64,000 nucleotides of DNA, from positions 1 through 64,000 of IMG/VR virus record IMGVR_UViG_3300025122_000010; one strand, 5' to 3'. The notes under the pieces were generated by a model. The model made no database searches. It was given only the letters and a program-made list of their open reading frames with translations, and was not told the origin of the DNA. This DNA comes from a virus. Position numbers and translations under genes: made by a program. Shown here piece by piece: positions 17,230 to 36,209 of this stretch (the first letter of the stretch is position 1; each line of letters begins with the position of its first letter).

Positions 17230-17289
17230 GACATCAGGGAAATAAAACTAAACTTAATCAGAATACTCTGAACGAAAATAATATTGAGA

Positions 17290-17607
17290 AGCAAGGATTA
17301 GAGCTACTTCTATCAAATTGATAACTTGATACCTAAGACCGGCATTATGATTCGGTCACAGCGAACTAAGTAATACTTAGTTCAAAACCGCAACAAGCTA
17401 TTTTATCCTTTTGAGCGAAAAAAAGGAAATCCTCTGATTCGATAATTCTCTCAATTGTAATAAGAATAACATGAAGAAAGCAAGGATTAGAGTTACTTCA
17501 TAATTTGCCTACAAAGCAAACTTTCAGAAAAGACACTCTGTCCAACAATTCTTCTTCATTTAAATTTGAATAATTTAATATCAGATAGCAAGCTAAAGAG
17601 TTACTTC
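17290..17607 (+). repeat. three copies of a 21-bp motif
   Basis: AGCAAGGATTAGAGYTACTTC at 17290-17310 and 17479-17499 (one difference), and a diverged copy AGCAAGCTAAAGAGTTACTTC at 17587-17607. Spacings of 189 and 108 bp suggest repeated RNA units or protein-binding sites. Confidence 0.75.
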
Positions 17608-17657
17608 GACATAGAGACGACAAATACTCTTGGCACCTATTCTTCTGATTTATTGTA

Positions 17658-17695
17658 GACACGGACACTACAACAAATCTGTGTCTATTTTTGTT
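17658..17695 (+). terminator. intrinsic terminator before the Ro gene
   Basis: GACACGGA at 17658-17665 pairs with TCTGTGTC at 17678-17685 (8 bp, one G-U), loop of 12, followed by TATTTTTGTTT. It ends a transcript just 45 bp before the Ro start, so the upstream region is probably made as separate RNA. Confidence 0.75.
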
Positions 17696-17739
17696 TGTCA
17701 AAAACTTCAACGCAGTATATACTCGAGGAGGTAAACGTT

Positions 17740-19353
17740 ATGGGAAAGTTCACAGGTACAGCAACTCCTAAGATTAATCATCGTAAGGCACATCCACGTG
17801 CTAGTGAGATCAAGGAAACAAGAAACTTTGAAAGTGGAAAGGCTTTCACTCTTCCTGCTAAGGAACGTCTAGCTACAAGAGTGATGACTTCAATGATTAA
17901 TGAGAAGTCATTCTATGGTGACACTACATCTGAGCTCTTGAATGATCTTAGAGAAGTTGCAAAGACAGATCCTCTATTCATTCTTAAGTTGGCTGCATAC
18001 ACTCGTAATATCATGTTCTTGCGTTCTGCTCCAACTTTTGTTCTAGCTCATGGCTCAATGATTCCTGAAGTGAAGCCTTATATTCGTCAGTGGACTCCTA
18101 AGATTCTAAAGAGAGCTGATGAACCAGCAGAGACACTTGCTGCAATCAATAGCATCTTTACTGAAAAGGGTGAGAAGCCAGTTATCCCTAACTCTATCAA
18201 GAAGGGTATCTCTGATGCATTGAGAAACTTTGACGCTTACCAGTTGATGAAGTATAAGGGTGAGGGACAGTCAGTTAATCTTTGGGATGTGTTCAATGTA
18301 TGTCACCCAAAGCCAACTAATGGTGAGCAAGCTTCAATGTGGAAGTCTTTCATGAATAGTGAACTCAATCCTGCTAAGACTTGGGAAACTGAGTTGTCTA
18401 AGACAGGACAGACTGGTAAGTCCAAGGCTAAGGCTTGGGAAGACATCATTCCTTCTATGGGTTATATGGCTATTATACGTAACCTTAGAAACTTCATTCA
18501 GGAAGGGTTGTCAGATGAATTGATTTCTGAAATTTGCAAGAAGTTGACAGACCCTAAGGCTGTTGCAAAGAACAAGCAGCTTCCATTCCGTTACTTCTCT
18601 GCTTATCGTGAGCTTGAAAAGCTTACAGGCAAAAGTATGTTTGCTCGTGACTACTGGGGAAATAGAGAAAATAGAGATGAAAAGGTGTTCACAGCTCCTG
18701 AGGAGAAGACTAAGATAAAGAAGCTAATGAGAGCTGTTGATAAGGCAATGGCACTTTCTGTTCAGAACGTCGATCAGTTGCCTGGTGTAACAGCGATCTT
18801 CTCTGATCACTCAGCTTCAATGGATAGCTCAATTTCAAGTAAGTCAAGCATTACGCATATGAACGTAGCAATGGTTCTTCATGCATTGACTGACTCTCTG
18901 AATCCTGAGAATGTTGGTGCAATCTTTGGTGAGTCAATTGCTGCTGTTGATTCTGAAGGTTTGACTCCAATGAAGTTTATTGAAGCAATGGTTAATACAG
19001 ATGTTGGTCACTCAACTAATGCTTGGTTGTGCTTTGATCATTTGACTAAGTCAAAGGTAAAAGTTGACAGAATCATCTTACTTTCAGACATGCAGTGTTA
19101 CAATTCTAGTGGATATGGACTTCGTTCTGGTTCACGAAGTGTATCTGACAAGTGGGATACATATCGCACCAAGGTTAACCCAGATGCTTGGTTCCATTCA
19201 ATTGATCTAGCTGGATATGGAACATCAGTTGAGCCGATCAATTCAAAGAATGTCTCACTCTTTGCCGGCTGGAACACAAGGTTCTTGGATGTTATCAAGG
19301 GAGTTGAGAAGGGTGTTGGTGGATTGGTTGAAGAGATTGAGAATTACAGTTAG
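17740..19353 (+). CDS. rsr: Ro60/TROVE-domain RNA-binding protein (Rsr-like)
   Basis: 537 aa from ATG 17740, chosen over the in-frame start at 17695 because GAGGAGG precedes it. N-terminal HEAT-like TROVE ring (residues about 35-340; RMTSMINEKSFYG, LKLAAYTRN, ALRNFDAYQL) and a C-terminal von Willebrand A domain with MIDAS DHSASM (about residue 357). Ro proteins bind Y RNAs and the ends of defective RNAs and can guide exonucleases. A phage copy suggests handling of tRNA or structured RNA. Codon use shows more ending in G than neighbours. Confidence 0.92.
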   Translation: MGKFTGTATPKINHRKAHPRASEIKETRNFESGKAFTLPAKERLATRVMTSMINEKSFYGDTTSELLNDLREVAKTDPLFILKLAAYTRNIMFLRSAPTFVLAHGSMIPEVKPYIRQWTPKILKRADEPAETLAAINSIFTEKGEKPVIPNSIKKGISDALRNFDAYQLMKYKGEGQSVNLWDVFNVCHPKPTNGEQASMWKSFMNSELNPAKTWETELSKTGQTGKSKAKAWEDIIPSMGYMAIIRNLRNFIQEGLSDELISEICKKLTDPKAVAKNKQLPFRYFSAYRELEKLTGKSMFARDYWGNRENRDEKVFTAPEEKTKIKKLMRAVDKAMALSVQNVDQLPGVTAIFSDHSASMDSSISSKSSITHMNVAMVLHALTDSLNPENVGAIFGESIAAVDSEGLTPMKFIEAMVNTDVGHSTNAWLCFDHLTKSKVKVDRIILLSDMQCYNSSGYGLRSGSRSVSDKWDTYRTKVNPDAWFHSIDLAGYGTSVEPINSKNVSLFAGWNTRFLDVIKGVEKGVGGLVEEIENYS

Positions 19354-32937: not shown

Positions 32938-32945
32938 TATTTACA

Positions 32946-33073
32946 GATCAACAAATCGTCTAATGGAAAGACACTTTGCTTGAGGAGGGCTGGTTCGACT
33001 CCAGCTGACGCGTAGTAGCTCACGAGGGAGAGCGCTGAGAAGAAATGCAGGTTCGAATCCTGTTTTGTTGATC
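32946..33073 (+). ncRNA. composite tRNA-like RNA closed by a 10-bp helix
   Basis: GATCAACAAA (32946-32955) pairs with TTTGTTGATC (33064-33073). Inside are two D-arm-like parts (GTCTAATGGAAAGAC; GCTCACGAGGGAGAGC) and two perfect T-arms (GCTGG-TTCGACT-CCAGC; GCAGG-TTCGAAT-CCTGT). No proper anticodon arm or CCA. TTTATTTTG follows, so the outer helix could also terminate transcription. Resembles tRNA-mimic Y RNAs; a degenerate tRNA pair is the alternative. Confidence 0.6.
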
Positions 33074-33090
33074 TTTATTTTGAACTTTTG

Positions 33091-33140: not shown

Positions 33141-33227
33141 GGTCGCACCTCTGATCGTCTAATTAGGGAAGACACCGCATATAAATGCGGAGATAAGGGT
33201 TCGATCCCCTCATGAGGTTACGCGATC
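33141..33227 (+). ncRNA. tRNA-like RNA with extended terminal helix
   Basis: GGTCGC+ACCTC (33141-33151) pairs with GAGGT+GCGATC (33214-33227, TAC bulge). D-arm-like GTC...GAC, an anticodon-like arm CCGCA-TATAAA-TGCGG whose loop has only 6 nt, and a T-arm AGGG-TTCGATC-CCCT. No CCA. The stem running past the acceptor is a Y-RNA-like feature; a decayed tRNA is the alternative. Confidence 0.55.
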
Positions 33228-33231
33228 ACTA

Positions 33232-36137: not shown

Positions 36138-36209
36138 GGGCGAGTAACTCAAGCAATATTTTAGGCAGAGTACCGGTAGTTACGGGTTCGAATCCCGCCT
36201 CGTCCACCA
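36138..36209 (+). tRNA. tRNA-like gene lacking an anticodon arm
   Basis: Good acceptor GGGCGAG/CTCGTCC, D-stem ACTC/GAGT with a 17-nt loop, T-arm CGGG-TTCGAAT-CCCG and CCA. Only about 10 nt separate D- and T-arms, so no anticodon arm can form. Decayed tRNA or a tRNA mimic. Confidence 0.65.

What the first reader, a model, noticed from the sequence alone, without database searches (positions are those of the whole stretch)
32946..33073. Double tRNA-like RNA sealed by a 10-bp terminal helix
Two D-arm-like and two T-arm elements lie inside one perfectly paired outer stem, with no usable anticodon arm or CCA. This is close to the architecture of tRNA-mimicking Y RNAs. With a Ro protein in the same genome it is a good ligand candidate.
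Basis: partly seen in the sequence, partly recalled or inferred. Interest (0 to 1): 0.75.

Follow-up and report, generated by a model that had tools for sequence, protein, structure and literature searches.

The report
Tandem tRNA fold sealed by one stem

Summary
Window 32945-33074 has a perfect 11-bp terminal helix enclosing D-arm, T-arm, D-arm, T-arm, with no anticodon loop and no CCA, while at least 32 of the 34 ordinary tRNA genes here encode CCA. The two local 'tRNAs' cannot close their own acceptor stems (2/7 and 4/7 pairs); only the outer ends pair (11/11). So this is one RNA: a complete tRNA body whose anticodon arm is replaced by a circularly permuted tRNA core (T-arm, linker, D-arm).

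The Ro-ligand reading is not supported. The phage does encode a Ro (TROVE) protein, at 17695-19353, but three tandem Y-like RNAs lie just upstream of that gene (17281-17651) and carry a Y-type GCAAG-N4-AGAGYTACTTC motif that the 33-kb element lacks. Scans of viral contigs show two separate groups: free-standing Y RNAs with the motif (24 of 29 contigs encode TROVE) and tRNA-in-tRNA RNAs without it (0 of 12 encode TROVE).

The element is best read as a divergent member of that second, recurrent class, for which I found no Rfam family or paper. It differs by a longer terminal helix and by lacking the inner acceptor hairpin. Function is inferred only: a non-decoding, two-elbowed tRNA mimic. Decay of a former nested RNA is not excluded.

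The parts
32945..32955 (+). 5' strand of 11-bp terminal helix AGATCAACAAA; 32949-32955 is the outer 7-nt acceptor strand
   Evidence: 11/11 Watson-Crick with 33064-33074
32958..32972 (+). outer D-arm (D1) GTCT-AATGGAA-AGAC
   Evidence: sequence; part of RF00005 match 32949-33071
32974..32988 (+). 5' junction between the two cores (CTTTGCTTGAGGAGG), where an anticodon stem would be; only weak pairing with 33034-33046
   Evidence: longest helix 4 bp, p=0.87
32989..33005 (+). inner T-arm (T1) GCTGG-TTCGACT-CCAGC
   Evidence: sequence; start of weak YrlA match 32989-33033
33006..33015 (+). linker TGACGCGTAG where relatives have an inner acceptor hairpin; no hairpin here
   Evidence: hairpin test p=0.98 here; 4-8 bp hairpins in 10 of 10 relatives tested
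33016..33033 (+). inner U8-A9 and D-arm (D2) TA-GCTC-ACGAGGGA-GAGC
   Evidence: sequence
33034..33046 (+). 3' junction GCTGAGAAGAAAT; no anticodon loop
33047..33063 (+). outer T-arm (T2) GCAGG-TTCGAAT-CCTGT
   Evidence: RF00005 alignment
33064..33074 (+). 3' strand of terminal helix TTTGTTGATCT; discriminator-like A at 33071; no CCA
17281..17457 (+). candidate Y RNA a, just upstream of the Ro gene; motif GCAAGGATTAGAGCTACTTC at 17291; lower and upper end helices
   Evidence: pattern; fold
17471..17557 (+). candidate Y RNA b; motif at 17480
17578..17651 (+). candidate Y RNA c; motif at 17588
17695..19353 (+). Ro60/TROVE protein gene (552 aa from the TTG start)
   Evidence: PF05731 62.6 and 45.2 bits, over cut-off

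Best explanation
The locus encodes one non-decoding RNA with a tRNA-inside-a-tRNA architecture. The outer part is a complete tRNA body (acceptor helix extended to 11 bp, D-arm, T-arm); in place of its anticodon arm sits a second tRNA core in circularly permuted order (T-arm, linker, D-arm), the same order as the effector module of bacterial Y RNAs. It is a divergent member of a recurrent class of phage RNAs that is better preserved in other phages. Shown here: the anatomy, the pairing, the lack of anticodon and CCA, the recurrence of the class, and its separation from Ro-associated Y RNAs. Inferred: that it is made as a stable RNA from the tRNA array, that the outer tRNA body serves as a stabilising scaffold, and that the two elbows let it act as a tRNA mimic that binds or decoys elbow-recognising factors (for example PNPase, which the YrlA tRNA-like module is reported to bind, or tRNA-modifying or tRNA-cleaving enzymes).
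For: Outer helix 11/11 while both local acceptor pairings fail. One tRNA match spanning 123 nt with the insert exactly in the anticodon arm. All four arms without a mismatch. No CCA, against CCA in nearly all ordinary tRNA genes of this genome. Recurrence: among 60 D1-T1-T2 arrangements in viral contigs, 13 have 7/7 outer acceptor pairing against 0.5 expected after shuffling acceptors (a few of the 60 are ordinary Leu/Ser tRNAs whose anticodon arm mimics a T-arm). Ten better-preserved relatives from viral contigs (L241, L196, L189, L256, L267, L272, L470, L275, L288, L315) have outer 7-bp acceptor, D1, T1, inner acceptor hairpin of 4-8 bp (shuffle p<0.05 in 8 of 10), D2 and T2; in several the nested fold equals the unconstrained minimum. 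YrlA scores 41-42 bits in three such loci. ARAGORN calls none of the nine loci tested.
Against: The window member lacks the inner acceptor hairpin, its joining helix is not significant, and its folding energy is ordinary (z = -1.28). There is no diverged relative of this phage, so no covariation for this copy. The shells were found by requiring outer pairing, so that pairing is not independent evidence within the relatives. No expression data. Nothing tests the decoy role.
Confidence: 0.55

Rival explanations
1. It is a tRNA-mimicking Y RNA that binds the phage's Ro protein through its terminal helix.
For: Ro/TROVE gene in the same genome; permuted T-arm/D-arm order as in YrlA; long terminal helix as in Y RNAs; none of the three Ro-adjacent Y-like RNAs shows a tRNA-like module, so the phage could use a separate one.
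Against: No Y-type motif in the element; it occurs three times, all next to Ro. YrlA 15.6 bits, below a tandem tRNA pair at 17.9. 13.6 kb from the Ro gene. Relatives of the nested class lack the motif and TROVE (0 of 12, many of them fragments).
Confidence: 0.12
2. It is a decayed remnant: a former nested RNA, or recombined tRNA genes, no longer functional in this phage.
For: Missing inner acceptor hairpin and weak joining helix; ordinary folding energy; present in one lineage only.
Against: Terminal helix extended to 11 perfect pairs and no mismatch in any of the four arms; simple decay of two tandem tRNAs does not create the outer pairing.
Confidence: 0.2
3. It is a precursor of one or two functional tRNAs released by splicing at the anticodon, as for intron-containing or permuted tRNA genes of algae and archaea.
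For: Permuted T-arm-first order resembles permuted tRNA genes (PMC3978253).
Against: At the two junctions there are too few bases for two anticodon loops (by inspection of 32974-32988 and 33034-33046: about 1 nt on one side, none on the other); no CCA; the phage already has tRNAs for all 20 amino acids. Bulge-helix-bulge splicing is described for archaea and eukaryotes (PMC3978253); I did not search for a splicing enzyme here.
Confidence: 0.03
4. Chance: an outer complementarity around two unrelated tRNA fragments.
For: Single copy in one lineage.
Against: About 3e-7 for the 11-bp helix at its register and a recurrent class of the same build elsewhere.
Confidence: 0.03

Closest known systems
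Bacterial Y RNA YrlA (Rfam RF02553)
   Same: permuted tRNA-like module, T-arm before D-arm; terminal helix closing the RNA
   Different: here a whole tRNA body replaces the Ro-binding stem; no Y-type GTTAC/TACTTC motif; no acceptor-like hairpin in this copy; score 15.6 bits against gathering 69
tRNA (Rfam RF00005)
   Same: acceptor, D-arm and T-arm of the outer body; 42.9 bits over gathering 29
   Different: no anticodon arm, no CCA, 11-bp instead of 7-bp acceptor helix, 58-nt insert
Phage T4 stable RNA rnaC (species 1 RNA)
   Same: stable non-tRNA RNA in a phage tRNA cluster with a canonical T-arm near its 3' end
   Different: no complete tRNA shell and no tRNA match (only a sub-threshold tRNA-Sec hit, 17.5 bits); single T-arm
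Circularly permuted tRNA genes of algae and archaea
   Same: 3' half before 5' half in the inner core
   Different: those mature to decoding tRNAs through a circular intermediate (PMC3978253); here no anticodon and an outer tRNA body around it
tmRNA
   Same: tRNA body with an insert in the anticodon position
   Different: the insert is a second tRNA-like core, not a tag reading frame; no CCA; no tmRNA match at gathering threshold
Engineered tRNA scaffold for recombinant RNA
   Same: a cargo RNA expressed within a tRNA body (method used in PMC3753655; placement in the anticodon stem is from general knowledge)
   Different: artificial; here natural and the cargo is itself tRNA-like

Membership tests
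YrlA / bacterial Y RNA | score at or above Rfam gathering threshold | tested here: not met
   15.6 vs 69 bits; note that the free-standing phage modules scanned also score only 37-43, so this alone is weak
YrlA / bacterial Y RNA | conserved Ro-binding motif on the 5' strand of the basal stem (GTTAC/TACTTC type in phage Y RNAs) | tested here: not met
   absent in the element; three copies next to Ro. That this motif is the Ro-binding site is inferred from its association with TROVE
YrlA / bacterial Y RNA | tRNA-like module: T-arm, acceptor-like hairpin, D-arm | tested here: inconclusive
   T-arm and D-arm in the right order, hairpin absent
YrlA / bacterial Y RNA | gene near a Ro gene | tested here: inconclusive
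   Ro in the genome but 13.6 kb away, with three other Y-like RNAs beside it
YrlA / bacterial Y RNA | binds Ro | not testable with these tools
   needs a binding assay
decoding tRNA | acceptor, D and T arms | tested here: met
   RF00005 42.9 bits
decoding tRNA | anticodon stem and 7-nt loop with U33 | tested here: not met
   insert of 58 nt, no loop
decoding tRNA | CCA, as encoded by nearly all tRNA genes of this genome | tested here: not met
   ATCT after the acceptor; 32 of 34 others end in CCA
two decayed tandem tRNAs | each core pairs its own acceptor strands | tested here: not met
   2/7 and 4/7 pairs
nested tRNA-in-tRNA class described here | outer tRNA shell with paired acceptor around inner T-arm then D-arm | tested here: met
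nested tRNA-in-tRNA class described here | inner acceptor hairpin between T1 and D2 | tested here: not met
   10-nt linker, p=0.98

The most novel reading that the evidence does not exclude
Phages encode an undescribed class of two-headed tRNA mimics, in which a circularly permuted tRNA core replaces the anticodon arm of a tRNA body, acting without Ro; the window carries a variant with a sealed 11-bp end.
Probability: 0.5. Interest if true: 0.8.

Novelty: new variant of a known kind. Interest (0 to 1): 0.6.

Why it matters
ARAGORN misses these genes, and an automatic reading would call them pseudo-tRNAs or Y RNAs. If they are real stable RNAs, phages build natural tRNA scaffolds that carry a second tRNA core, which opens a direct test of whether phages use tRNA mimics without Ro to occupy RNA-decay, modification or defence enzymes. 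The contrast also gives a simple sequence rule for telling phage Y RNAs that go with Ro (motif present) from tRNA mimics that do not.

Tried and rejected
Rfam YrlA score as proof of a Y RNA: rejected, since an ordinary tandem tRNA pair in the same window scores as high. Reading every close T-arm pair in viral contigs as a double tRNA: rejected after finding that TTCAANT or TTCGANT loops directly after a D-arm are Leu(CAA) or Ser(CGA) anticodon arms, and that some large shells enclose whole tandem tRNAs. Ro-gene, neighbour-gene and RecA-like searches for diverged relatives of this phage: only the near-identical sibling contig carries the element. Known-phage BLAST of nested loci: matches were ordinary tRNAs, or free-standing Y RNAs near Ro genes as in Mycobacterium phage Sparky and Gordonia phage Sixama. 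T4 rnaC as a member: rejected, no tRNA shell. A strict pattern in bacterial genomes gave only four contigs, none with an outer shell by my test. Chen 2014 on bacterial Y RNAs is not held, so it was not read. The paper library is partial, so absence of a published class is not proof.

Full report
What was checked. The window lies in an 84,102-base phage contig with 34 ARAGORN tRNA genes that cover all 20 amino acids. The element starts 7 nt after the tRNA-Thr gene, on the same strand. It contains, in order, D-arm, T-arm, D-arm, T-arm inside a terminal helix of 11 Watson-Crick pairs (32945-32955 with 33064-33074), one pair more than reported. Rfam's tRNA model matches 32949-33071 as one tRNA with a long insert in the anticodon arm (42.9 bits).

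Why it is not two tandem tRNAs. D-T-D-T is also the order of two ordinary tRNAs, so the order alone says nothing. The acceptor strands decide: CAACAAA with TGACGCG gives 2/7 pairs, CGCGTAG with TTTGTTG gives 4/7, while the outermost strands pair 11/11. There is no room for an anticodon loop on either side, and CCA is absent although 32 of 34 tRNA genes here end in CCA. All four arms are free of mismatches. Against this, the RNA is not unusually stable (z = -1.28) and the helix joining the cores is weak.

Relatives in other phages. A structural filter showed that outer acceptor pairing is far above chance (13 of 60 against 0.5 after shuffling; this count includes some ordinary Leu or Ser tRNAs). 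Strict tRNA-shell scanning found roughly 100 shells of 96 nt or more in 2.1 Mb whose anticodon region is replaced by other sequence; a minority of these enclose whole tandem tRNAs. Ten loci have a full nested build: outer acceptor, D1, T1, inner acceptor hairpin, D2, T2 (L241:8511-8651, L196:2239-2385, L189 minus strand 2551-2724, L256:349-501, L267:5897-6048, L272 minus strand 91-226, L470:4757-4895, L275:3730-3864, L288:5204-5343, L315:498-635). L196/L189 and L256/L267 are pairs of near relatives, so there are about eight independent cases. Their inner hairpins are 4-8 bp. ARAGORN reports none of the nine loci tested. The window's element keeps the outer body, T1 and D2 but has a 10-nt linker instead of the inner hairpin, and a longer terminal helix.

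The Ro question. The phage has a TROVE gene at 17695-19353. Just upstream are three tandem RNAs, each with a lower and an upper end helix and the shared 5' motif GCAAG-N4-AGAGYTACTTC; the helix sequences differ between the three but still pair. A fourth viral scan for the permuted module with a TTCG loop returned 120 stretches. Of 50 with a hairpin of at least 4 bp, 30 have a GTTAC/TACTTC/GTTATC-type motif in the preceding 60 nt, against 6.7% background. TROVE is encoded on 24 of 29 contigs with the motif, 5 of 19 without it, and 0 of 12 nested contigs. The nested contigs include 104, 154, 254 and 271 kb records but also short fragments, and a Y RNA beside Ro is more easily caught on a short contig, so the contrast is strong but not clean. 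In a wider set of tRNA-shell contigs 3 of 35 had TROVE. Known phages Sparky and Sixama show the free-standing form near annotated Ro genes.

How it may work. In YrlA the basal stem tethers the Ro-like protein Rsr and the tRNA-like domain binds PNPase (review PMC8394870). The nested RNAs keep a tRNA-like permuted module but have a tRNA body where the Ro stem would be. The simplest inference is a stable, non-decoding mimic with two tRNA elbows that engages elbow-recognising proteins without Ro. Which protein, and whether the phage benefits, is not shown.

Novelty. No Rfam family and no paper found in the searches made describes this build; the library is partial. The parts are known, so I rate it a new variant of a known kind rather than categorically new.

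Noticed in passing
window 33141-33228: Second odd tRNA-like RNA about 67 nt downstream: D-arm, T-arm, anticodon stem closed by an AUAA tetraloop, no CCA, and a terminal helix of about 15 bp with a bulge (GGTCGCACCTCTGA.../...TCATGAGGTTACGCGATC). RF00005 23.1 bits, below gathering; fold.
   Followed up: partly
window 36138-36206: tRNA-like match (30.7 bits) with no anticodon arm but an encoded CCA; not called by ARAGORN.
   Followed up: no
window 17281-17651: Three tandem candidate Y RNAs directly upstream of the Ro gene, with shared motif and differing but still paired end helices.
   Followed up: partly
L161, L168, L184, L188, L200, L097: Phage contigs carrying several copies of a Leu-like tRNA shell (AGTCAGG...CCTGACT) with unrelated 40-100 nt sequences in place of the anticodon arm.
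   Followed up: no
L126, L154, L163, L173, L184: Leu-like shells sharing a motif close to GTATGGTACTATTG before the 3' T-arm, together with an extra T-arm.
   Followed up: no
L101, L114, L124, L195: tRNA shells whose insert shares a small hairpin followed by CAGC or CTGC; some keep a plausible anticodon arm after the insert.
   Followed up: no
L480, L481, L482, L483: Bacterial MAG contigs (Saprospirales/Chitinophagales, Parvibaculum) with T-arm, TTCG hairpin, D-arm, T-arm but no outer tRNA shell by my test.
   Followed up: partly
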